Below are positions 10,252 to 22,827 of a stretch of 39,643 nucleotides of DNA, piece by piece. Origin of the DNA: Clostridia bacterium (GTDB lineage Bacteria; Bacillota; Clostridia; Oscillospirales; Acutalibacteraceae); contig JAFUQS010000009.1 in the NCBI GenBank assembly GCA_017472225.1, positions 1-39,643 of the forward strand. Direction: 5' to 3'. The notes below the pieces were generated by a model. It ran no database searches and was not told the origin of the DNA. It was given only the letters and a program-made list of their open reading frames with translations. The first letter of the stretch is position 1, and every line of letters starts with the position of its first letter. A program made the position numbers and the translations under genes.

Positions 10252-11457
10252 TTATTTCATCAGTCTTCTGATAACAGCTTCGCAGTCTGCTTCGTTCATG
10301 ATCTTCGGAACGGGATAAAGGGGATTGCCCTCTTTAAGTGCACGCTTAACGATTGTGGGAATATCCTCATCCTTGATGCAGTCAAACTTGTCGGGAATAT
10401 TCATGTTTCTGTTAAGAGTCTTGATAGCTTCAATGAAGGCTTCTGCCTTTTCCTTGTCTGTGCCGTCAGTTTTTACACCGGCAACAACAGCAAGCTTTGC
10501 AAGACGGGCGTGTGCGCTTTCGCCGAAATATTCAAGAACATAAGGAAGAATAACAGCGTTTGCAAGGCCGTGGGGGATACCGTAATAACCGCCAAGGTTG
10601 TGAGCAATTGCATGAACATAGCCTACATAAGCTCTTGTGAATGCCATACCTGCATAGAAGGAAGCCTTGAGCATTGCCTCTCTTGCTTCGATATCCTTGC
10701 CGTCGTTGTATGCTTTTTCGATGTTATCAAAAATCATCTTTGTTGCTTTTTCTGCATAAGCCTCTGTTGACTTTACATTACTTCTGCCGATGTAAGCCTC
10801 AACTGCATGAGTGAGAGCGTCCATACCTGTTGTTGAAGTAATATGAGGGGGAAGACCTACTGTAAGCTCAGGGTCGAGAACTGCATATTTGGGTCTGAGC
10901 TTCGGGTCGTTGATAGCGTTCTTTTCGTGAGTTTCGGGGTCGCTGACAACTGCTGCAACAGTAACCTCAGAGCCTGTACCCGCTGTTGTGGGAACTGCAA
11001 ACAGGGGAGGAAGCTTGTGCCATACCTTGAGAGTACCACGCATTTTCTTAACAGGTGTTTTCGGATTTGTAACTCTTGCTGCTGCTGCCTTTGCACAGTC
11101 CATCGGTGAGCCGCCGCCGAAGGCTATGATACCTTCACAGCCGTTGTCAAGATAAAGCTGTCTTGCGTCCTCGATGTTCTGGATTGAGGGGTTGGGCTGA
11201 GTGCCGTCATAAACTGCATATTCAACGCCTGCCTTGTCAAGCTCCTCAAAAAGAGGGTCAAGAAGGTGAATACCCATAAGTCCCTTATCTGTTACAACAA
11301 GAACCTTTTTAAGTCCCTTGCTCTTGATGAATTCGGGAAGCTGACGGATTGCACCGGGGCCTTCAAGAAGCTGAGGCTCGGACCAGTCAAAAATGAACAT
11401 TGCATACTTAAAAACAGTCTGGAATGTTCTGTAATATGCCTTTTTCAATTGCCACAT
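10252..11457 (-). CDS. Iron-containing (group III) alcohol dehydrogenase
   Basis: A 401-residue cytosolic NAD(P)-dependent dehydrogenase interconverting alcohols and aldehydes. Family signs: the GGGSPMDCAKA dinucleotide motif (about 115-125), PTTAGTGSEVT (about 156-166), and the metal-site regions DALTHAVEAY and HAIAHNLGGYYGIPHG, giving the Asp and three His ligands. Length is normal. The N-terminus is about 20 residues longer than usual before FDWSEPQLLEGPGA; AAGGAAG precedes the first ATG, so I keep it. Highly biased codons suggest strong expression, consistent with a fermentative alcohol or butanol-type dehydrogenase. It has its own promoter (11494-11522) and terminator. The exact alcohol is not determinable. 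Confidence 0.92.
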   Translation of the reverse strand: MWQLKKAYYRTFQTVFKYAMFIFDWSEPQLLEGPGAIRQLPEFIKSKGLKKVLVVTDKGLMGIHLLDPLFEELDKAGVEYAVYDGTQPNPSIQNIEDARQLYLDNGCEGIIAFGGGSPMDCAKAAAARVTNPKTPVKKMRGTLKVWHKLPPLFAVPTTAGTGSEVTVAAVVSDPETHEKNAINDPKLRPKYAVLDPELTVGLPPHITSTTGMDALTHAVEAYIGRSNVKSTEAYAEKATKMIFDNIEKAYNDGKDIEAREAMLKASFYAGMAFTRAYVGYVHAIAHNLGGYYGIPHGLANAVILPYVLEYFGESAHARLAKLAVVAGVKTDGTDKEKAEAFIEAIKTLNRNMNIPDKFDCIKDEDIPTIVKRALKEGNPLYPVPKIMNEADCEAVIRRLMK

Positions 11458-13379: not shown

Positions 13380-14078
13380 ATGACATATGTAATCGGTGAT
13401 ATACACGGAAATAAAGAAAAGTACGATGCAATGCTTGAAAAGCTCAGCCCGAAGGACACAGATGCTGTTTTTGTTCTCGGTGATGTGATTGACATCGGTG
13501 ATGACGGCATTGCAATTTTACAGGATATGATGTACAGAGCTAATGTTTATCCCGTTCTCGGTGAGCACGAATATATGGCAAAAAAATTTCTGCCCGTTAT
13601 CGCAGAAAAGGGCAGTGCTGAAAAGGCTCTTGCAGCTCTTGAGGGCGAAGAAAAGGAACAGCTTGCAAAATGGCTCACCATGAAAAGCGAAAAAACAATT
13701 GCCGATTTTCTCTCACTTGACGAGGAGGGCAGAGAGGCTGTACTTGATTATTTTTCTGAATTCACACCTTATGAAGAATTGGAGGAGGGCGGAAAAACCT
13801 TTGTTCTTGCCCATGCCGGCATAAATAATTTTGATGAGGGCAAGAGTCTTGAGGATTACAGCGAGGAGGATTTTGTTTTTGCAAAAACAGATTATAACAC
13901 TCCGTGCTTTTCAGATAAATATCTTGTAACAGCACACACCCCCACAGTTGCCATCGGCAAAGAATTTGCCGGCAAGGTTTACAGCAAAAAAAGACACGTT
14001 GCAATTGATTGCGGCTGTGGCTACGGAGGCAGACTTGCAGCGGTATGCCTGAACCCGTTGAAGGTGTTCTATTGCTGA
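13380..14078 (+). CDS. PPP-family metallophosphatase (PrpE/ApaH-like)
   Basis: A 232-residue soluble phosphatase. It contains GDIHG (7-11), GDVIDIGDDG (about 35-44, the GDxxDxG motif), then GEHE at the position where the family has GNHE, then an AHAG histidine segment and a final AHTP histidine motif. The family includes serine/threonine phosphatases and diadenosine tetraphosphatases. The Asn to Glu change at the GNHE site removes a usual metal ligand and proton-network residue, so activity may be changed. AAAGGAA precedes the start by about eight bases. It ends in a strong hairpin shared with the convergent operon. Confidence 0.82.
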   Translation: MTYVIGDIHGNKEKYDAMLEKLSPKDTDAVFVLGDVIDIGDDGIAILQDMMYRANVYPVLGEHEYMAKKFLPVIAEKGSAEKALAALEGEEKEQLAKWLTMKSEKTIADFLSLDEEGREAVLDYFSEFTPYEELEEGGKTFVLAHAGINNFDEGKSLEDYSEEDFVFAKTDYNTPCFSDKYLVTAHTPTVAIGKEFAGKVYSKKRHVAIDCGCGYGGRLAAVCLNPLKVFYC

Positions 14079-14138
14079 AAATAATGGCTTTGCAGCGGGC
14101 AATATCATTATTTATATAAATAATTTTATAATAACAAA

Positions 14139-14171
14139 GAGCCATCTTTCCCGATAAGGGTAAGGTGGCTC
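14139..14171. terminator. Bidirectional terminator
   Basis: A GAGCCATCTTTCCC/GGGTAAGGTGGCTC stem with a short loop; AATTTGTTTTG follows on the plus strand and T/A-rich sequence on the minus strand. It separates the phosphatase gene from the convergent transketolase operon. Confidence 0.75.
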
Positions 14172-14241
14172 AATTTGTTTTGTTATAATGCCCTTAAGGG
14201 GCAAGGCGATGCTTTTTTAAGCATCCGGAAAGAGCTTTTAC

Positions 14242-15045
14242 TTATTTTGCAAGTGCGCCGATTTCAAGCATGAATCCGCCAATCTGTGCGCCGAATTCCG
14301 GTGCGCCGTCCATGATAAGGCGGCCTGCCTTTGTTGCTTCAAGCATATCGTCGATACTCATAAGAATACCGAGTGCGCTGTCAAGGTTGTTGAAGCGGAG
14401 AGTGAAGAACGGCATTGCTCTCTTGTATTCACCACGACCTGCTCTTGACTTACCTGCTTTGATTCTGAGATATGCAGAAATCTGAGGATAACCGTCAACT
14501 GCAAAAGCATAAACACGGTCGGGACTCTTTGAAGTCCAGTCTCTGATTTCAGGATGTCCCATTTTGTTAAGCTGGCTGATACCGCTGGAAAGAAGATAGA
14601 AATAGCACTTAACAAGAAGCTCCTTTGTTTCTTCGTCCTTGGGAGGCTCTGTTGCACCGAGAAGACTTGCCATTTTAAGAAGAACCATTACGAAGGAAAC
14701 AAGTGTGCCTGCGTGCTTGATACCCTTGATTTTGGGAATACCGGCAGGGGTAATCTTGCCCTTGAAGAAATCGTTGAGATTTTCAACGCTCTTGAATTCA
14801 AGCTCAATGTGGGGATCTTCTGTAAGACAGGTGTGAACGAGCCATTCGCCTGAGTTCACAACAAAGTGCATACCTTGCTTGCCACCCTCTGCATCGGGGT
14901 CAAGGCAGCTTACCTGAATTACTGCGTGTGCATTTTCAAACTTCTTTTTAAGGGAGGGTACATCGTTTGCGATAACCTTTACAAGCGGCAAAGCAGCATT
15001 GAGAAAGATTTTATTTGAATATAAGGCTTCCTTTGTATGAGCCAT
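14242..15045 (-). CDS. Two-module SCP2-like (lipid-binding-fold) protein 2
   Basis: A 267-residue soluble protein and the last gene of the operon. I read the pattern as SCP2/sterol-carrier-like: a strand with HFVVNSGEW, then HIELEFKSVENLNDFFKGK (about residues 80-98), matching the SCP2 'strand, then ceiling on helix, then GK' shape. A second similar unit, MPFFTLRFNNLDSALGILMS with a later GAPEFG (about 210-257), sits in the C-terminal half, so it appears internally duplicated. Between them lies a hydrophobic helical stretch. It aligns by eye in the same order with the first gene of the operon (18304-19065). Good RBS (AAGGAGG). The fold call is weak-to-moderate; a plain unknown-domain label would also be defensible. 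Confidence 0.6.
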   Translation of the reverse strand: MAHTKEALYSNKIFLNAALPLVKVIANDVPSLKKKFENAHAVIQVSCLDPDAEGGKQGMHFVVNSGEWLVHTCLTEDPHIELEFKSVENLNDFFKGKITPAGIPKIKGIKHAGTLVSFVMVLLKMASLLGATEPPKDEETKELLVKCYFYLLSSGISQLNKMGHPEIRDWTSKSPDRVYAFAVDGYPQISAYLRIKAGKSRAGRGEYKRAMPFFTLRFNNLDSALGILMSIDDMLEATKAGRLIMDGAPEFGAQIGGFMLEIGALAK

Positions 15046-15066
15046 ATCGTTTGCCTCCTTGTATTA

Positions 15067-16077
15067 TTAGAATTCGTCGTCCCAGTTGTCGTCTTCTTCG
15101 AAGTCCATGTTCATTACTTCACGAACAGCAGCTACGATACCGTTTGTATCAATGCCGACCTCGGACATAATATCTTCGTGAAGGCCGATGGGAGCGAACT
15201 TATCCTGATGACCGAGCATCTTGAATGCACAGCCCTTACCTGCCTGAGCCATAACCTCAGCAACTGCTGAGCCGAGACCGCCGATAACACTGTGGTCTTC
15301 AACTGTGATGATTCTTCTTGTGTCCATAACAGCCTTGATGATAGCTTCCTTATCGATGGGCTTGATTGTGTGCATATTGAGAACACGAACCTTAAGTCCG
15401 TCAGCATTTTCAAGGAAGTTTGCTGCCTGAAGAGCCTGGAATGCACAAGAACCGCAAGCGATAACGGTGATATCTGTACCTTCGTGAAGCTCAACTGCCT
15501 TACCAACCTCAAAGCCATAATCTGTGTCGGAATAAAGAACACGGTCAAAGCCACGGTTGATACGGATATAGAAGGGACCTTCTGTGTTATAAGCTGCCTT
15601 AACTGCGTTTGCTGTTTCGTAGCCGTCAGCGGGAACGATGACAGTAAGGTTGGGCATTGCTCTTGTGATTGCAAGGTCAGTGATTGCATGGTGTGTTGAA
15701 CCTGCCTGACCGAAGGAGGTACCTGCATGTGTTGCAATGATTTTTGCATTTACATTCTGATAGCAGATATCTGTGTGGAGCTGATCGCAGGCTCTCATTG
15801 ATGTGAAGGCGGAGAAGCCTGACATGAAGGGGATAAGACCTGCTCTTGCCATACCTGCGCCAACACCGAACATATCCTGTTCAGCAATACCTACATTGAA
15901 AACTCTTTCGGGGCAAACCTTGAGAACGTCACCTAATTTTGTTGACTTTGCAAGGTCGGGAGTGATTGCAACAACCTTGGGGTCATTGATGATAATGTCA
16001 GCAAGAGTCTTGCCGTAAATTTCAGCTGTTGAAATTGAAGTCTGGTCAACTGCGTTATATACAAATCCGCCTGCCAT
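15067..16077 (-). CDS. Transketolase, C-terminal subunit
   Basis: A 336-residue subunit of a split, thiamine-diphosphate-dependent transketolase. It holds the pyrimidine-binding domain, with the catalytic glutamate in NVGIAEQDM (E66), and the transketolase C-terminal domain with GLGSAVAEV near the end. Enzyme action is transfer of a two-carbon ketol unit between sugar phosphates or other aldehydes, with the N-terminal subunit (next gene upstream) supplying the diphosphate and metal site. Only two bases separate the N-subunit stop from this start; GGAGGG lies within the upstream gene. The tail is very acidic. Operon context with an aminotransferase and SCP2-like proteins is unusual for a pentose-phosphate enzyme. 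Confidence 0.9.
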   Translation of the reverse strand: MAGGFVYNAVDQTSISTAEIYGKTLADIIINDPKVVAITPDLAKSTKLGDVLKVCPERVFNVGIAEQDMFGVGAGMARAGLIPFMSGFSAFTSMRACDQLHTDICYQNVNAKIIATHAGTSFGQAGSTHHAITDLAITRAMPNLTVIVPADGYETANAVKAAYNTEGPFYIRINRGFDRVLYSDTDYGFEVGKAVELHEGTDITVIACGSCAFQALQAANFLENADGLKVRVLNMHTIKPIDKEAIIKAVMDTRRIITVEDHSVIGGLGSAVAEVMAQAGKGCAFKMLGHQDKFAPIGLHEDIMSEVGIDTNGIVAAVREVMNMDFEEDDNWDDEF

Positions 16078-16079
16078 AA

Positions 16080-16958
16080 TTATTTGCCCTCCTTTTCTGC
16101 ACGAGCGCAGCGTGCCTTGTAGTCTTCTTCAAGCTCTTTGTTGAACTTTTCGAAAAGTGCATCATCAATTGCACCGTAGTGCCAGAGATAATCGCCTTCC
16201 ATAGTCTTGACACCGGCACCCTTCTTTGTATCCATAAGAATACATGTGGGAGCGCAGGGTTCCTTTGATCTTTCAATTGCGGCATCGATAGCTTCACAAA
16301 GCTCGCCGATGTTGTTACCGTCAACGCAGATTGTGTTGAAGCCGAAGGCCTTCATCTTGTCCGCAAGGGGTTCAAGCTTCATAACCTCTTCTGTGGGGCC
16401 GTCGATCATGCAATGGTTACGGTCGATGAAAACGATACAGTTGGAAAGGTTATAGTGGTTGATTGTCATAAAGCCTTCCCAGTTTGAGCCTTCGCCAAGC
16501 TCACCGTCACCTGTTACGATGTATGTAAGGTAATCCTTGCCGAGAACTCTTGCTGCGAGTGCTGTACCTGCTGCGATTGATGCACCGTGGCCGAGTGAGC
16601 CTGTTGATGCGTCAACGCCGATAACCTTGTTTGAGTCAAGGTGCATACCCATTTTTGAACCTGAAAGGTTAAAGGTTTTGAGAGATTCAACATCGTTGAA
16701 GCCCTTGTCACAAAGTACGGGAGCGTAAGCAATTGCTGCGTGACCCTTTGAAAGGATAAAACGGTCTCTGTCTTCCCACTTAGGATCGTCAACCTTGATG
16801 TTGAGATACTTGTGGTAGAGAACGGTAAGAAGGTCAAGAACACTCATACCGCCGCCGAGATGTCCGCTGCCTGCCCATACAGTTGTCTGTATAGTAAGCT
16901 TACGAAGCTCGAAAGCCTTCTTTTCAAGGGCAAGCCATTCTTTTTTTGAAAGTGGCAT
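16080..16958 (-). CDS. Transketolase, N-terminal subunit
   Basis: A 292-residue subunit. SGH (31-33) and SKGHAA (70-75) are the substrate and cofactor histidine regions, and GDGELGEG (150-157) with N181 forms the thiamine-diphosphate/metal motif (GDG about 30 residues before N). It pairs with the C-terminal subunit immediately downstream. The start at 16958 is chosen because GGAGG lies seven bases before it; an in-frame ATG at 16973 would put the RBS inside the gene. Such split pairs are common in Clostridia as well as full-length transketolases. A small ACCCTG/CAGGGT hairpin (16994-17009) lies in the 67-base gap after the aminotransferase gene and may balance the expression of the two parts. 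Confidence 0.9.
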   Translation of the reverse strand: MPLSKKEWLALEKKAFELRKLTIQTTVWAGSGHLGGGMSVLDLLTVLYHKYLNIKVDDPKWEDRDRFILSKGHAAIAYAPVLCDKGFNDVESLKTFNLSGSKMGMHLDSNKVIGVDASTGSLGHGASIAAGTALAARVLGKDYLTYIVTGDGELGEGSNWEGFMTINHYNLSNCIVFIDRNHCMIDGPTEEVMKLEPLADKMKAFGFNTICVDGNNIGELCEAIDAAIERSKEPCAPTCILMDTKKGAGVKTMEGDYLWHYGAIDDALFEKFNKELEEDYKARCARAEKEGK

Positions 16959-17025
16959 AATAATTTCCTCCATATTTTAATTTTTAATTTAACACCCTGA
17001 TTTCAGGGTATAAGTTACATTTTTA

Positions 17026-18291
17026 TCAGCCGAAGATATCCGGGTGATTTTTGGCTACGATGCCGAAGCATTCTTCAGCAACCTCAATTGTGTGCTTGAT
17101 ATCCTTATCGGAAAGAGCAGCATTGATGAAGTGGTTGTGGTGAGAAGCAAGGAAGATACCTCTTGATACCATTTCAGCAATCCATTCCTGATGAAGAAGC
17201 ATACTGTCATCGTTGCCTATTCTCAGATAGAACAATGCGGGAGCACCTGAAACAACAAGGTCGATGCCGTGTTCTGCACCGGCTTTAACAAGACCGTTGC
17301 AAAGCTTTTCGCCCTTCTTTTTGAACAGGGTGGGAATGTCAAGCTCCTTCATTTTGTTGATGTTTGCAATACAGGCTGCAAAAGGAACGGCTGAAAGCCA
17401 GTATGAGCCTGTGTATGCAAGTGAGCTCATTGCGCCCTTGAGGAATTCCTTGCCGCAGAGAGCTGACATATTGTAGCCGTTGGCAAGTGCCTTGCAGAAG
17501 CAGATAAGGTCAGCCTCAAAGCCGAAGAAATGGTCTGAGCCCTTAAGGTCAAGACGGAAGCCTGCACGAACATCGTCAACGATAAGAACGATGTCATTCT
17601 TTGTGCAGATTTCTCTTACCTGCTGCCAGAAGCCCTTTTCGGGGAAGGCATTATCGTGGAAGTTGCCGTGGTCATAGGGCTGAGCGATGATACAGGCAAT
17701 TTCATTTTTATTTTCTTCAATTGTTTTTTCAAGAAGGGGGATATCGTTCCAGGGGAGCATAATGTTGTTTGCAACATCCTCGGGAAGAACGCCCGGATAG
17801 TCAATTTTCTGGCACCAGGGTGAAACACCGTGATAGTAGCCGGAGAACATAATAACTTTCTTTCTGTGTGTATATGCTCTTGCGCACATAATTGCGCCCT
17901 GAGTTGCGTCGTTACCGTTCTTTGCAAAGAATGCCCAGTCGGCAGAAGCAACAGTATCAACAAGAAGCTCTGCACATTCAAGCATAACCTTACCGGGCTG
18001 TGTTGTGCAGTTACCGAGAGCAATCTGCTTCATAGCTGCAGCGTCAACATCCGGGTCGCAGTAACCGAGAACATTGGGGCCGTAAGCACACATATAGTCG
18101 ATGTACTTGTTGCCGTCAACGTCCCATACGTATGTACCCTTTGCCTTTTCGGCAAACATGGGCCACTTTGAAACGGGAATGAACTGACCTTCAGCGGGGC
18201 CGAGGTGACCGTAGATACCTGAAGGAATTACCTTGGTTGCTCTTGAAAACATTTCTCTGCTTTTGTCTGTTTTGTATACAGGAAAACTCAT
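17026..18291 (-). CDS. Class III (glutamate-1-semialdehyde-type) aminotransferase
   Basis: A 421-residue PLP enzyme, fold type I. It has the phosphate-site segment GNDAT (126-130), SGYYHG (150-155), the cofactor aspartate in VDDVRAGFR (D239), and the Schiff-base lysine in CKALANGY (K267). These match the glutamate-1-semialdehyde aminomutase branch. HemL itself is unlikely: no heme genes are near, and motif details (GNDAT for SGTEA) differ, so it probably aminates another ketone or aldehyde. It lies 12 bases after the first SCP2-like gene with AGGAGG in the gap. In this operon the likely role is to aminate the ketone formed by the transketolase (inference). Confidence 0.88.
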   Translation of the reverse strand: MSFPVYKTDKSREMFSRATKVIPSGIYGHLGPAEGQFIPVSKWPMFAEKAKGTYVWDVDGNKYIDYMCAYGPNVLGYCDPDVDAAAMKQIALGNCTTQPGKVMLECAELLVDTVASADWAFFAKNGNDATQGAIMCARAYTHRKKVIMFSGYYHGVSPWCQKIDYPGVLPEDVANNIMLPWNDIPLLEKTIEENKNEIACIIAQPYDHGNFHDNAFPEKGFWQQVREICTKNDIVLIVDDVRAGFRLDLKGSDHFFGFEADLICFCKALANGYNMSALCGKEFLKGAMSSLAYTGSYWLSAVPFAACIANINKMKELDIPTLFKKKGEKLCNGLVKAGAEHGIDLVVSGAPALFYLRIGNDDSMLLHQEWIAEMVSRGIFLASHHNHFINAALSDKDIKHTIEVAEECFGIVAKNHPDIFG

Positions 18292-18303
18292 TGTAATACC
18301 TCC

Positions 18304-19065
18304 TTATGCAAGATAGAGTGCAACTCTGTCAAGAATTCTGTTTACATTGTCAATCATATTGATCTGACCGTGCATTTCAACAAGACCTTCACCAACAGCA
18401 GCAATAGCATTGATATTGCCGTCGAAAAGATCTCTTGCGGTACGGATATCGCAGAACTGCATCTGTGAACGGAAAGCCTCGGGCTTTTGCTTGATTGTTA
18501 CCATATGGCTGTCCTTGACACGGATTGTTGCGCCTACGCAGTCCTTGATTGAAACATCAATGATACCGTCGGGAATAAGAGAAGCACTGAATTTGCCGAT
18601 TTCATCGTTGTTGCCGATTTGTGAAAGGGCAACGGTGATAACATAGAACATAAGCTTTGTGCTGATTTCAAAGAACTTTTCGTCTTTAAGGTCCTCCGGT
18701 GTTGCTCTCAGATACTTTGAAAGGATATCTGTGAGAGGAATAAACTTCTTGAGAAGGAAGCCGACCTTTGAAAAGCCTTTTGAGGGGAGTGCAGAGCCTG
18801 TTCCGTCAACCATTGCGTTGAATTTTTCAGGTGTGGAGAAGGGGAGAAGAACATCGCAGTCCTTTGTGCCCTGTTCCATTCTGCATCTGCCGTTTTTGAA
18901 GGTAAGGGTTGCGCTGGGGCCGCCTGTAACTTCAAGACCGACGGAAACGGGCTTCTTTGTCTTTACGAGGTCACTTGCAGCCTTGTCAAGCTCGCAAAGG
19001 TTTTCGATAGCACCGAGAACAGCATACATATTGATATATGCCAGGGTTTTTGCATCTGTCATCAT
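18304..19065 (-). CDS. Two-module SCP2-like (lipid-binding-fold) protein 1
   Basis: A 253-residue soluble protein and the first gene of the operon. SVGLEV, ATLTFKNGRCRMEQG and CDVLLPFSTPEKFNAMVDG (about residues 38-88) follow the SCP2 pattern of glycine-edged strands and a substrate-cap helix ending in DG. A second unit, GATIRVKD...MQFCDIRTARDLFDGNINAIAAVGEG (about 178-233), repeats the pattern. A hydrophobic region (LLKKFIPLTDILSKYL) precedes a helical middle. It shares overall order with the last gene (14242-15045) and is probably a distant paralogue. SCP2 proteins bind fatty acyl chains or sterols in other systems; here the ligand is not known. GGAGG precedes the first ATG by eight bases. 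Confidence 0.65.
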   Translation of the reverse strand: MMTDAKTLAYINMYAVLGAIENLCELDKAASDLVKTKKPVSVGLEVTGGPSATLTFKNGRCRMEQGTKDCDVLLPFSTPEKFNAMVDGTGSALPSKGFSKVGFLLKKFIPLTDILSKYLRATPEDLKDEKFFEISTKLMFYVITVALSQIGNNDEIGKFSASLIPDGIIDVSIKDCVGATIRVKDSHMVTIKQKPEAFRSQMQFCDIRTARDLFDGNINAIAAVGEGLVEMHGQINMIDNVNRILDRVALYLA

Positions 19066-19136: not shown

Positions 19137-19165
19137 ATTTTAACAAAATATCCTCTTTATGTCAA
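19137..19165 (-). promoter_or_regulatory. Promoter of the transketolase operon
   Basis: On the minus strand TTGACA (19165-19160), 17-base spacer, TAAAAT (19142-19137): a near-consensus sigma-A promoter about 70 bases upstream of the first gene. Confidence 0.7.
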
Positions 19166-19740: not shown

Positions 19741-19754
19741 TGAGCCAACATATG

Positions 19755-19840
19755 AATATTACTGGGGGTGCTGATTTTTCGGCTGAGATTATACCCATAA
19801 CCTGATTCGGATAATACCGACGTAGGCTAAGTAAAGAATG
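19755..19840 (+). promoter_or_regulatory. TPP riboswitch (THI box)
   Basis: The conserved THI element is complete: GGGGTGC, CTGAGATTATACCCA-like, AACCTGATTCGGATAATACC and GTAGG...AAGTAA. It is followed by a terminator, so thiamine diphosphate is expected to stop transcription of the importer genes. Confidence 0.95.
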
Positions 19841-19849
19841 CTGTTATTT

Positions 19850-19970: not shown

Positions 19971-20270
19971 ATGACAGCAAGTGTTGCAATTCAGGTTCTG
20001 CCTCAGGTGGATTCAACCGAAAAGCTTATTGAAATTGTGGATGCGGTTATCGATTATATCGCTTCAACAGGATATAACTATTATGTCGGTCCTTTTGAAA
20101 CCACAATTGAGGGCGAGAGCTATGACGAGCTTATGGAAATTGTGAAAAACTGTCAGAAGGTTGCAATTGAAAAGGGCTGTGACAGCGTTTCGGCTTATGT
20201 CAAAATCAGCTATAAACCGGAAGGCGGTGTGCTTACAATTGACCAGAAGGTTACAAAGCATCACAAATAA
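19971..20270 (+). CDS. Thiamine-binding protein (MTH1187/YkoF family)
   Basis: A 99-residue protein with a ferredoxin-like pattern: ASVAIQVLPQ strand, a long helix, then VGPFETTIEGE, VIVKNC-like helix and VSAYVKISY strand. This is the Thiamine_BP (DUF77) family. It is first after the TPP riboswitch and overlaps or abuts the permease. It lacks a signal peptide, so it acts inside the cell or at the inner face of the importer. The start is at an ATG preceded by AGGAGTG. Family length (about 95-100 residues) is matched. Confidence 0.85.
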   Translation: MTASVAIQVLPQVDSTEKLIEIVDAVIDYIASTGYNYYVGPFETTIEGESYDELMEIVKNCQKVAIEKGCDSVSAYVKISYKPEGGVLTIDQKVTKHHK

Positions 20271-21006
20271 GGCGGCGCCTGTTATCTCTCTTGCAGTGCT
20301 GGCGGCACTCTGGCTTTTTGTCAGTGAAGGCGGAATTGTTCCCGCATATATGCTTCCGTCACCCGTTGAGGTTGTGAAGGCATTTGTGAATGATTTCGAT
20401 ATTCTTTGCTCTCACGCCGCAGTTACAATGCAAGAGGCAGTCTACGGCCTTTTAATCGGTACGGCACTTGCTTTTGTTATTGCCGTGCTGATGGACAGAT
20501 TTGCTTTTCTTCACAAGGCACTTTACCCCATACTTGTCATTACTCAGACTATACCCACAATCGCAATTGCACCACTTCTGGTGTTGTGGATGGGCTTTTC
20601 AATGGCGCCCAAAATTACCCTTGTTGTGCTGACAACCTTTTTCCCGATTGCCATTTCTTTGCTTGATGGCTTTCAGAGCGCAGACATCGATGAAATCAAC
20701 CTTATACGCAGTATGGGCGGCACAAGGGCACAGATTTTTCTGCACGTTAAATTGCCCGGTGCCGTGGAGCAGTTTTTTTCAGGTCTTAAGGTATCCGCAT
20801 CATATTCAATTGTCGGTGCGGTTATTTCCGAATGGCTCGGCGGCTTTGAAGGGCTCGGCGTATATATGACAAGGGTGAAAAAGGCATATGCCTTTGACAA
20901 GATGTTTGCCGTTATTATTCTTATCTCTGTTGTGTCGCTTTTGCTTATGGCACTTGTGGCACTTCTGAAAAGAACAGCAATGCCCTATAAGAGGAGCAGG
21001 CAGTAG
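20227..21006 (+). CDS. thiX: Thiamine-precursor ABC permease (ThiX-like)
   Basis: A membrane permease of the SsuC/TauC/ThiX group. After residue 20 it has AAPVISLAVLAALWLFV and four more hydrophobic helices. The EAA-type coupling loop is DEINLIRSMGGTRAQIFLHVKLPG (quoted only as its core EINLIRSMGG, LPG). The open frame begins at 20161, inside the upstream gene. I choose GTG 20227 as a compromise, with TTG 20239 also possible; both leave a 30-45-base overlap with the thiamine-binding gene, so translation is probably coupled. TPP riboswitch control and the ThiY/ThiZ genes downstream define the role as uptake of a thiamine pyrimidine precursor or thiamine. Confidence 0.88.
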   Translation: MCLQLTRRLQSITNKAAPVISLAVLAALWLFVSEGGIVPAYMLPSPVEVVKAFVNDFDILCSHAAVTMQEAVYGLLIGTALAFVIAVLMDRFAFLHKALYPILVITQTIPTIAIAPLLVLWMGFSMAPKITLVVLTTFFPIAISLLDGFQSADIDEINLIRSMGGTRAQIFLHVKLPGAVEQFFSGLKVSASYSIVGAVISEWLGGFEGLGVYMTRVKKAYAFDKMFAVIILISVVSLLLMALVALLKRTAMPYKRSRQ

Positions 21007-21064
21007 TCAGGGTGTGGAGAACCTTAATTCTGCATTCATAGAAAGATGCTCAGAAAGGAAAATT

Positions 21065-22066
21065 ATGAAAAAGATAATATCACTTTTACTTGCAGTCACT
21101 GTTCTTTTTGCTTTTACCGCCTGCGGTGCGGAAAAACAGAACGGGGATGAGCTTTCTGAAATTACGGTTTGTCTTGACTGGACACCGAATACAAATCATA
21201 CAGGCTTTTTTGTTGCCGATAAGCTTGGTTATTACGAGCAGGCGGGCATCAAGGTGAGTATTGTTCAGCCGCCGGAAGACGGCGCAGAGCTTATGACGGC
21301 ATCGGGACAGGCTCAGTTCGGAATATCCTTCCAGGATTCACTTGCACCCTTGTTTGCCTGTGATGAGCCTATGGAAATTACGGCTGTTTCTGCAATTATT
21401 CAGCATAATACCTCAGGAATTATATCCCGTAAGGGTGAGGGTATGGATACCCCCAAGGGACTTGAAGGCAAAAGCTATTCAACCTGGAACGGACCTGTTG
21501 AGCTTGCAATAATTGAAACCGTTATGGAAAATGACGGCGGTGATTTTGCAAAGCTTGAGCTTATTCCAAATGTTGTTACAAACGAAGCTGAGGCACTCAG
21601 AAACAAGGATACCGACGCTATCTGGATTTTCTATGCATGGGCAGGTGTTGCCTGTGAGGTTGCAGAGCTTGAATTTGATTATTTCGATTTTATCGATATC
21701 AATCCCGTTTTCGATTATTACACACCGGTTATTATTGCTAATAACAAATACCTCAGCGAAAATCCGGAAACGGCAAAGGCTTTTCTTGAAGCAACAAAGA
21801 AGGGCTACGAATACGCAATTGAAAATCCTCAGGAGGCTGCAGAAATACTTATTGAAGGGGATACAACCGGCTCACTCAAGGATTCTGTTGAGCTTGTTAC
21901 GGAAAGTCAGAAGTGGATTTCCCGTCAGTATACAGCCGATGCTGAGTCATGGGGTGTGTTTGATTCCGAAAGATGGAACAGCTTTTATGCCTGGCTTTGG
22001 GAAAAAGGACTTATTGGAAAGGAAATTCCCGAAAACACAGGCTTCACCAATGATTTTATAAAATAA
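21065..22066 (+). CDS. thiY: Thiamine-precursor binding lipoprotein (ThiY-like)
   Basis: A 333-residue lipoprotein: MKK, a hydrophobic stretch and lipobox FTAC at about residue 20, then a periplasmic-type fold of the NMT1/THI5-like family. Family sequence signs are LDWTPNTNHTGFFVAD, GFFVADKLGYYEQAGI and the GISFQDSLAPL segment. It delivers a hydroxymethylpyrimidine or formylaminopyrimidine-type precursor (family knowledge) to the ThiX/ThiZ importer. The start at 21065 has AAAGGA upstream; an earlier in-frame GTG at 21014 would hide the signal peptide. The gap to the permease is 58 bases and to the ATPase 14. Confidence 0.92.
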   Translation: MKKIISLLLAVTVLFAFTACGAEKQNGDELSEITVCLDWTPNTNHTGFFVADKLGYYEQAGIKVSIVQPPEDGAELMTASGQAQFGISFQDSLAPLFACDEPMEITAVSAIIQHNTSGIISRKGEGMDTPKGLEGKSYSTWNGPVELAIIETVMENDGGDFAKLELIPNVVTNEAEALRNKDTDAIWIFYAWAGVACEVAELEFDYFDFIDINPVFDYYTPVIIANNKYLSENPETAKAFLEATKKGYEYAIENPQEAAEILIEGDTTGSLKDSVELVTESQKWISRQYTADAESWGVFDSERWNSFYAWLWEKGLIGKEIPENTGFTNDFIK

Positions 22067-22080
22067 GGGTTGATGTTTTT

Positions 22081-22827
22081 ATGGCTAAACTCAGGGCAGA
22101 AAATATAACAATGGGCTTTGACGGCGAACGGGTAATTGAAGATATATCTCTGAAGCTGAACGAGGGAGAAATTGTTTCTCTTTTAGGAGTCAGCGGAAGC
22201 GGTAAAACAACCCTTTTCAATGTTCTGTCAGGTCTGTATTCTCCCGAAAGCGGCAAGGTTTATCTTGACGGAGAGGACATAACGGGCAAGGCAGGCAAAA
22301 TCAGTTATATGCTTCAGAAGGATCTGCTTTTGCCTCACTATACAATTATAGATAATGTTTCTCTGCCTCTTGTGATAAAGGGCGAAAAGAAAAAAACGGC
22401 AAGAGAAAAGGCAATGCCTTATTTTGCCGAGTTCGGTCTTGAGGGTACTCAGAAAAAGTATCCCGGTGAGCTTTCCGGCGGTATGAGGCAAAGGGCGGCG
22501 CTTCTGCGCACCTATCTCAGCTCTGAGGGTGTTGCACTTCTTGACGAGCCCTTCAGTGCACTTGATACTATTACCAAAAGTGCAATTCACACATGGTATC
22601 TTGATATAATGAAAAAAATCAACCTTTCAACAATTTTCGTCACCCACGATATTGATGAGGCGATTCTGCTGTCAGACAGAATTTATATTCTTTCGGGTAA
22701 GCCGGGCAGAATAACTGATGAAATTGAAATCACTCTGCCAAAGCCGAGGTCAAACAAAGATGTGATGACAGAGGCATTCATTTCATATAAAAGACTGATT
22801 GCAGAAAAAATTGCTTTTGAATTTTAA
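22081..22827 (+). CDS. thiZ: Thiamine-precursor ABC ATPase (ThiZ-like)
   Basis: A 248-residue ATPase with Walker A GVSGSGKTT (about 36-44), a Q-loop (MLQKDLLLPH), signature LSGGMRQRAAL (about 130-140), Walker B ALLDEPFSALD and the H-loop THD. The final gene of the operon, it ends three bases before a terminator hairpin. It matches the nitrate/sulfonate/thiamine-type ATPases. RBS GGGTTGATG is weak, so coupling to the upstream gene is likely. Confidence 0.92.
   Translation: MAKLRAENITMGFDGERVIEDISLKLNEGEIVSLLGVSGSGKTTLFNVLSGLYSPESGKVYLDGEDITGKAGKISYMLQKDLLLPHYTIIDNVSLPLVIKGEKKKTAREKAMPYFAEFGLEGTQKKYPGELSGGMRQRAALLRTYLSSEGVALLDEPFSALDTITKSAIHTWYLDIMKKINLSTIFVTHDIDEAILLSDRIYILSGKPGRITDEIEITLPKPRSNKDVMTEAFISYKRLIAEKIAFEF

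What the first reader, a model, noticed from the sequence alone, without database searches (positions are those of the whole stretch)
14242..19065. Candidate new pathway: split transketolase and aminotransferase between two lipid-binding-fold proteins
One operon (-10/-35 at 19137-19165, short gaps of 2-67 bases) encodes SCP2-like 1, class III aminotransferase, transketolase N, transketolase C and SCP2-like 2. I know of no standard pathway with this set. Chemically, a transketolase can move a CO-CH2OH unit onto an aldehyde to give a 1,3-dihydroxy-2-ketone; an aminotransferase would turn this into a 2-amino-1,3-diol. With a long-chain aldehyde the product would be a sphinganine-like base without serine palmitoyltransferase. 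The lipid-binding-fold proteins would hold the chain. A hydrophilic aminosugar-type product is the main alternative.
Basis: inference. Interest (0 to 1): 0.75.

Follow-up and report, generated by a model that had tools for sequence, protein, structure and literature searches.

The report
Conserved transketolase–aminotransferase lipid-binding operon
Gut and rumen Clostridia carry a five-gene operon, kept together as a unit, that pairs an aminotransferase related to one that degrades a sphingoid-like toxin with a modified transketolase and two lipid-carrier-like proteins, and that may break down or make a long-chain amino-alcohol by a route for which I found no description.

Summary
Five genes run SCP2-like a, class III aminotransferase (AT), split transketolase (TK) N and C, SCP2-like b (19065 to 14242, minus strand). 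The order is intact in 75 of the 80 best named relatives; four of the other five end at a contig edge. AT occurs in 48 of 200 genomes of the host's GTDB family but 3 of 391 class-sampled genomes. AT groups with FumI, which deaminates hydrolysed fumonisin, a sphinganine mimic, and not with HemL. The TK is a second copy. In 77 operon copies it lacks two residues that the genome's other split TK keeps (Arg to Ala or Ser; Asp to Ala); a distant unlinked relative keeps the Arg. In one genome SCPa–AT and TKN–TKC–SCPb are separate units, so each enzyme seems to have its own carrier-like partner. A second AT with a FucA-like aldolase co-occurs (43 of 48). The substrate is unproven, and natural sphingoid C3 configuration fits a standard TK poorly.

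The parts
18304..19065 (-). SCPa: SCP2-like protein, first gene, travels with the aminotransferase
   Evidence: 28 of 37 aligned members match Pfam SCP2 at E <= 0.1; found just before AT in the 80 named loci and in the 10 loci
17026..18291 (-). AT: class III PLP aminotransferase of the FumI type
   Evidence: Best PDB match 6hbs (FumI), E 4.9e-84, against 3.6e-51 for the best HemL; tree support 99/99 with FumI relatives
16080..16958 (-). TKN: thiamine-diphosphate-binding half of a split transketolase (ORF opens at 16973; GGAGG favours the start at 16958)
   Evidence: Pfam Transketolase_N E 7.6e-39; best PDB match the split TK chain 6yak; start site
15067..16077 (-). TKC: pyrimidine-binding and C-terminal half of the split transketolase, with Ala18 and Ala125 at substrate positions
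   Evidence: Pfam Transket_pyr and Transketolase_C; best PDB match 6yaj; residues
14242..15045 (-). SCPb: second SCP2-like protein, distant paralogue of SCPa, travels with TKN-TKC
   Evidence: hhalign with SCPa, probability 95, 183 columns; last gene of the unit in 75 of 80 loci; with TKN-TKC in a separate unit in one genome
19137..19165 (-). sigma-70-like promoter TTGACA-17-TAAAAT with TG before the second hexamer
   Evidence: 11 of 12 consensus positions, best in the region; consensus match only

Best explanation
The operon encodes a two-step module for a hydrophobic 2-amino-1,3-diol (sphingoid-type base or close analogue). The FumI-type aminotransferase interconverts the 2-amine and the 1,3-dihydroxy-2-ketone. 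The specialised split transketolase then breaks (or forms) the C2-C3 bond, moving the CO-CH2OH unit onto a sugar phosphate and releasing a long-chain aldehyde. Each enzyme has its own SCP2-like partner, SCPa for AT and SCPb for TK, that presents the lipid chain. I judge breakdown likelier than synthesis. Shown: genes, conservation, enzyme families, altered active-site residues, modularity, co-occurrence. Inferred: substrate, lipid binding, partner role of the SCP2-like proteins, direction.
For: AT is closest to FumI and in its clade; FumI-type enzymes take the C2 amine off hydrolysed fumonisin, which resembles sphinganine (PMC9858248, passages). In 77 operon TKCs the position of human Arg318 is Ala (71) or Ser (6) and that of Asp424 is Ala (77), while Ser45, Glu66, His117 and Arg175 stay in 77 of 77; the host's other split TK keeps Arg and Asp. 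Changing E. coli D469 (the same Asp; match recalled) was part of the laboratory route to non-polar acceptors (PMC5073344, abstract and passages). The SCP2 domain of UbiJ binds hydrophobic pathway intermediates (PMC6747719, passages). SCPa-AT and TKN-TKC-SCPb are separate units in G022. A TKC over 50% identical was in none of 18 tested genomes without AT. For breakdown: of 8 annotated plasmid loci with FumI-like AT, 4 have a class II aldolase and a kinase, 3 an amidase or dimethylformamidase, 2 an E1-type thiamine enzyme. PF04734 (ceramidase family) matches are in 27 of 48 AT genomes against 12 of 152 others; a GH10 control shows 4 of 48 and 20 of 152.
Against: No substrate or activity is shown. 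SCP2 similarity is weak and no structure could be predicted. The distant, unlinked TKC of G022 keeps the Arg and has Ser for the Asp, and one further operon TKC (L152) has Thr for the Arg. Of the three positions changed in the laboratory TK, the family has altered only the Asp; the other two (Ser45 and Arg175 here; match recalled) are kept. From recalled stereochemistry, natural sphinganine gives a 3R ketone, whereas standard TK donors are 3S, and the His that helps set this is kept in the rows. Five genomes have AT and SCPa but no TKC over 43% identity, so AT has a use without this TK. The PF04734 matches are mostly partial, absent from the host and its two listed genus-mates, and not found beside AT or AT2 in loci L001-L167. 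AT2-aldolase, which co-occurs, has FGGY kinase and GPH symporter neighbours and no SCP2-like neighbour in 20 loci. A sugar-linked Rhizobium split TK has Leu for the Asp.
Confidence: 0.4

Rival explanations
1. The same two enzymes run the other way and make a sphinganine-like base without serine palmitoyltransferase: TK adds the two-carbon unit to a fatty aldehyde and AT aminates the ketone.
For: The same sequence evidence as above; no serine-palmitoyltransferase-type enzyme of note in the host assembly; TK plus transaminase to aminodiols is used in biocatalysis (papers listed; details recalled); the five genes include no regulator or transporter.
Against: FumI is a breakdown enzyme and several relatives have breakdown-type neighbours. 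Apart from the AT2-aldolase pair, no neighbour cluster is shared widely among the 80 loci (one search lists clusters; none of the rest is in more than 15 loci, and that one is antisense ORFs by my reading), so no partner for making a lipid stands out. No such lipid is known to me in these bacteria.
Confidence: 0.2
2. The substrate is a hydrophilic amino-polyol or amino-sugar; AT and TK process a ketose, and the SCP2-like proteins are scaffolds or bind something else.
For: AT2-aldolase loci carry FGGY kinase (10 of 20) and, in four, a GPH-type symporter cluster; a TK that cleaves a non-phosphorylated sulfosugar is transcribed by rumen Clostridia (PMC13219744, passages); PF04734-like proteins here sit beside DegT-like or GH3-like genes (these two names recalled); the G022 TKC keeps the phosphate-side Arg.
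Against: AT is FumI-type; two SCP2-like proteins, each tied to one enzyme; loss of the hydroxyl-binding Asp in 77 of 77 operon copies and in the 5 further members checked.
Confidence: 0.29
3. AT is the HemL of tetrapyrrole synthesis and the TK an ordinary pentose-phosphate enzyme that happen to be neighbours.
For: HemL models are among the family hits.
Against: HemL models score below their cut-offs, e.g. 215.7 against 527.3 bits; no ALAD match in the host assembly and in only 4 of 48 AT genomes; a second split TK exists; five-gene order in 75 of 80 loci.
Confidence: 0.03

Closest known systems
FumI, aminopentol (hydrolysed fumonisin B1) aminotransferase of Sphingopyxis (PDB 6hbs)
   Same: Same clade of class III aminotransferases, 36% identity, shared motifs such as YIDYMCAYGPN and VDDVRAGFR
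   Different: FumI is known from fumonisin breakdown; here the gene stands with an SCP2-like gene and usually a transketolase. Activity of AT is untested
Split-gene transketolase of Carboxydothermus hydrogenoformans (PDB 6yaj, 6yak; PMC7661550, abstract and passages)
   Same: Same two-chain layout and closest solved structure
   Different: That enzyme has Arg and Asp at the two substrate positions (alignment); the operon's TKC has Ala or Ser, and Ala
Sulfo-transketolase pathway (SqwGH)
   Same: TK made of two gene products in rumen Clostridia that breaks a non-phosphorylated ketose and gives two-carbon units to glyceraldehyde 3-phosphate (PMC13219744, passages)
   Different: The word aminotransferase does not occur in that paper's main text; none of its isomerase or reductase genes is among these five
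Engineered transketolase plus transaminase synthesis of 2-amino-1,3-diols
   Same: Same pair of reactions (papers listed; details recalled)
   Different: Man-made cascade; here a natural conserved operon with two carrier-like proteins
UbiJ and UbiT, SCP2-domain accessory proteins
   Same: An SCP2 domain that holds, or is proposed to hold, a hydrophobic intermediate for pathway enzymes (PMC6747719, passages)
   Different: Unrelated pathway; SCPa and SCPb are longer and only weakly SCP2-like

Membership tests
FumI-type aminotransferases | Falls in the FumI clade, not with HemL | tested here: met
   Support 99/99 in a 21-row tree; the tool flagged long branches at ArgD, HemL and one Streptomyces row
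FumI-type aminotransferases | PLP lysine present | tested here: met
   Lys aligned (CKALANG against GKCFANG); that this is the PLP lysine is recalled
FumI-type aminotransferases | Deaminates hydrolysed fumonisin or a sphingoid base | not testable with these tools
   Needs enzyme assay
HemL, glutamate-1-semialdehyde aminomutase | Reaches the curated HemL score and co-occurs with tetrapyrrole synthesis | tested here: not met
   215.7 bits against 527.3; ALAD in 4 of 48 AT genomes, none in host assembly
Housekeeping transketolase | Keeps the Arg and Asp that hold phosphate and alpha-hydroxyl (human R318, D424; roles recalled) | tested here: not met
   77 operon copies: Ala 71 or Ser 6, and Ala 77; L152 has Thr, and G022's unlinked TKC has Arg and Ser; host's other TK keeps both
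Transketolase superfamily | ThDP-binding half plus pyrimidine and C-terminal half, catalytic Glu and His kept | tested here: met
   Pfam; Glu66 in 77 of 77, TKN His265 in 78 of 78; other His seen in the 7-row alignment
SCP2 family | Pfam SCP2 at the curated cut-off | tested here: inconclusive
   Window SCPa 16.3 bits against 21.3; 28 of 37 aligned members match at E <= 0.1; SCPb 3 of 36
SCP2 family | Hydrophobic lipid-binding cavity | not testable with these tools
   Structure prediction switched off
Serine palmitoyltransferase pathway | Alpha-oxoamine synthase in the genome | tested here: not met
   Only 18.9 bits with TIGR01825 (cut-off 535.4) in a 91% complete assembly; the same search finds matches in 13 of 14 control genomes. 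The model is of a related family, not of the synthase itself
Sulfo-transketolase pathway | TK genes beside sulfosugar isomerase, reductase and exporter | tested here: not met
   None among the five operon genes; the rest of the genome was not searched for them

The most novel reading that the evidence does not exclude
A natural transketolase-transaminase pathway for sphingoid-type bases exists in gut and rumen Clostridia. It breaks them down without sphingosine kinase and phosphate lyase, or makes them without serine palmitoyltransferase, with one dedicated SCP2-like carrier for each enzyme. The co-occurring AT2, FucA-like aldolase and kinase would be a parallel branch for 4-hydroxylated bases: 2-keto-phytosphingosine would be 3R,4R, the configuration FucA-type aldolases handle (recalled chemistry).
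Probability: 0.36. Interest if true: 0.87.

Novelty: new variant of a known kind. Interest (0 to 1): 0.62.

Why it matters
If true, it would be another way to cut or build the sphingoid backbone, through thiamine chemistry instead of the known PLP lyase or synthase, and it would sit in mostly uncultured gut and rumen bacteria that meet dietary, host and bacterial sphingolipids. It would also give enzymologists a natural transketolase already shaped for hydrophobic aldehydes, paired with its transaminase, which laboratories have been building by directed evolution. It makes a testable case for carrier proteins handing a lipid between two enzymes. Even in the weaker reading, a five-gene unit whose aminotransferase is in about a quarter of one bacterial family (48 of 200) has no assigned function in the papers that my searches listed.

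Tried and rejected
HemL or ordinary pentose-phosphate function: rejected. Sulfo-transketolase: no partner genes among the five operon genes. PF04734 as direct proof of ceramide breakdown: not accepted, because the matches are mostly partial, are not beside AT or AT2 in loci L001-L167, are missing in the host and its two listed genus-mates, and of four inspected two are followed by a DegT-like gene and one follows a GH3-like gene (the names DegT and GH3 are recalled, no tool gave them). The Fe-dependent alcohol dehydrogenase at 10252-11457 as the aldehyde reductase: it did not turn up beside the operon in the 80 named loci, whose flanks are at most 7 kb. AT2-aldolase as an equal lipid branch: left open, since it has no SCP2-like neighbour in 20 loci and has sugar-type neighbours. 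Solved structures for SCPa and SCPb: only chance-level anti-sigma F matches, or none. Literature: the rows listed (lists capped at 5 to 20 papers) held no paper on this gene set or on a TK route for sphingoid bases; one search gave two passages of PMC7910519, of no help on breakdown. Only the held open-access library was searched.
Full report
What is there. The five ORFs are on the minus strand in the order SCPa (18304-19065), AT (17026-18291), TKN (16080-16958 or -16973), TKC (15067-16077), SCPb (14242-15045). Pfam and NCBIfam confirm a class III aminotransferase and the two halves of a transketolase. SCPa is weakly SCP2-like; 28 of 37 aligned members (the window plus 36 of the 80 loci) match SCP2 at E <= 0.1, best 6.3e-5. 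The window's SCPb has no match of its own but aligns with SCPa over 183 columns, probability 95, and each profile finds the other protein (E 1.1e-4 and 5.7e-6), so the two are probably distant paralogues.

Conservation. In 75 of these 80 the five genes stand in the same order, with median gaps of 15, 43, 2 and 38 bases. Four of the five others are cut by a contig end; one, L037, lacks the TK genes beside AT (its whole genome was not searched). The record titles name Clostridia, Oscillospiraceae, Ruminococcaceae and the like, with samples from goat, sheep, cattle, water buffalo, yak, roe deer, water deer and horse. In the host's GTDB family, which the tools leave unnamed, AT is in 48 of 200 sampled genomes at E <= 1e-80; in a class-wide sample it is in 3 of 391 at E <= 1e-70, the host included. 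The set is thus patchy, and the two outliers may be due to transfer (inference).

Two modules. Of ten further loci that I picked as outliers, odd cases or distant members, four have the TK genes beside AT (one with SCPb cut by the contig end), one ends at a contig edge and five have SCPa-AT without them. In G022 a TKN-TKC-SCPb set is a separate unit on another contig. In 27 genomes that I chose and tested with TKC, a close TKC (over 50% identity) was in 4, each with AT; none of 18 genomes without AT had one, and G511, G520, G198, G188 and G077 have AT but no such TKC. So SCPa goes with AT, SCPb goes with TK, and AT can stand without TK. I read this as one carrier-like partner per enzyme (inference).

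The aminotransferase. The best solved relative is FumI, E 4.9e-84, ahead of HemL at 3.6e-51. In a 21-row tree AT and FumI relatives group with support 99/99, apart from HemL and from AT2 (the tool warned of long branches at ArgD, HemL and one Streptomyces row). Identity is 36% to FumI and 30% to HemL. FumI-type enzymes take the C2 amine off hydrolysed fumonisin, which resembles sphinganine (PMC9858248, passages). The host assembly has no ALAD match, and ALAD is in 4 of 48 AT genomes and 16 of 152 others, so a HemL role is very unlikely.

The transketolase. The host has a second split TK at C17, so the operon's pair is an extra copy. Against human TK (alignment), TKC position 18 stands at Arg318 and position 125 at Asp424. 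In 77 operon copies (the window and 76 named loci) position 18 is Ala in 71 and Ser in 6, and position 125 is Ala in 77; the host's other TK has Arg and Asp. So the Asp is lost in every member examined, while loss of the Arg belongs to the operon copies. The roles of these residues in binding phosphate and the acceptor hydroxyl, and the match of Asp424 to E. coli D469, are recalled. Laboratory evolution of E. coli TK towards non-polar acceptors gave the variant S385Y/D469T/R520Q (PMC5073344, abstract and passages); of these three positions the family has changed only the Asp, since Ser45 and Arg175 (match recalled) are kept in 77 of 77. A phosphorylated partner on one side of the reaction is therefore still plausible. 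A sugar-linked Rhizobium split TK also lacks the Asp (Leu) but keeps the Arg, so loss of the Asp alone is not proof of a lipid substrate.

A linked second module. A different class III aminotransferase, AT2, followed by a tandem class II aldolase of FucA type, is divergent to the operon in 15 of the 70 named loci with over 2.5 kb upstream of SCPa. AT and AT2 are each in 48 of the same 200 genomes, together in 43 (Fisher p 2e-32, no correction for ancestry). In 20 AT2 loci that I fetched, of 48 genomes, the aldolase cluster is present in 17, an FGGY kinase cluster in 10, a TetR-like regulator cluster in 8 and a GPH-symporter cluster in 4 (one member of each of the last three was named). None of the 20 has an SCP2-like frame at E <= 1. 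The host has AT2 in two pieces at two contig ends. This module looks catabolic and partly sugar-like.

Relatives elsewhere. I fetched 10 of the 15 plasmid loci listed, of 1311 records with an AT relative; 8 are annotated. Of these 8, four have a class II aldolase (FucA-like in the three tested) and a kinase, three an amidase or dimethylformamidase annotation, and two (Agrobacterium and Shinella, alike) an E1-type thiamine enzyme (the Agrobacterium one checked). A FumI-type AT next to an enzyme that can cut hydroxyketones is the same logic as AT next to TK, in a breakdown setting (inference).

Ceramidase-family signal. PF04734 matches at E <= 0.001 are in 27 of 48 AT genomes and 12 of 152 others (p 1e-11); GH10 as a control is in 4 of 48 and 20 of 152. 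Neither test corrects for ancestry. The signal does not reach far: 26 of 200 genomes pass the curated cut-off, one near-full-length case stands out (G040), the host has none, and none lies beside AT or AT2 in loci L001-L167. It hints at N-acyl amine breakdown, not at sphingolipids as such.

Mechanism and direction. I favour: base + keto acid to 1,3-dihydroxy-2-ketone (AT, with SCPa), then ketone + aldose phosphate to ketose phosphate + fatty aldehyde (TK, with SCPb). A precedent in rumen Clostridia for a TK that takes two-carbon units off a non-phosphorylated ketose is the sulfo-transketolase pathway (PMC13219744, passages). The strongest point against natural sphinganine is recalled stereochemistry: its ketone would be 3R, TK donors are 3S. 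A threo base, or a changed TK, would remove this objection.

Verdict. The lipid amino-diol idea gained support from the FumI link, from the residues of the operon TKs and from the one-carrier-per-enzyme pattern. Direction and substrate stay open. The rows listed by ten paper searches of the held library named no such system.

Noticed in passing
window 19754-19846 (+), genes 19971-22827: A TPP riboswitch (Rfam RF00059, 62.6 bits) precedes a thiamine-binding-protein gene and what look like ABC transporter genes, divergent to the TK operon. The TK needs thiamine diphosphate; I did not test whether this neighbour is conserved.
   Followed up: partly
window about 14135-14185: A GAGCCA...TGGCTC inverted repeat with T-rich flanks downstream of SCPb looks by eye like a two-way terminator shared with the phosphatase-like gene 13380-14078; the scan, limited to loops of 3-8, did not list it.
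   Followed up: no
L062, L064 and 13 further named loci, upstream of SCPa: AT2, a HemL-like aminotransferase of about 493 residues, with a roughly 406-residue tandem FucA-like aldolase; co-occurs with AT in 43 of 48 genomes. Function unknown.
   Followed up: partly
L170:925-2277 and L171:1480-2778: PF04734-like (ceramidase-family) proteins of about 430-450 residues directly followed by a gene that looks DegT-like by eye: a possible amidase and aminotransferase pair.
   Followed up: partly
L150:5324-8944: In G022 a YqhD-like alcohol dehydrogenase and then a gene that looks like PdxS by eye follow SCPa-AT; they could handle aldehyde and PLP supply.
   Followed up: no
L154:1-4245: Two similar genes that look GH3-like by eye lie near SCPa-AT in G198, and a gene of like appearance adjoins its PF04734-like gene in L169.
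   Followed up: no
host assembly G000: No match reached the DXS cut-off; only the two split TKs match the dxs model. This may be due to 91% completeness.
   Followed up: no
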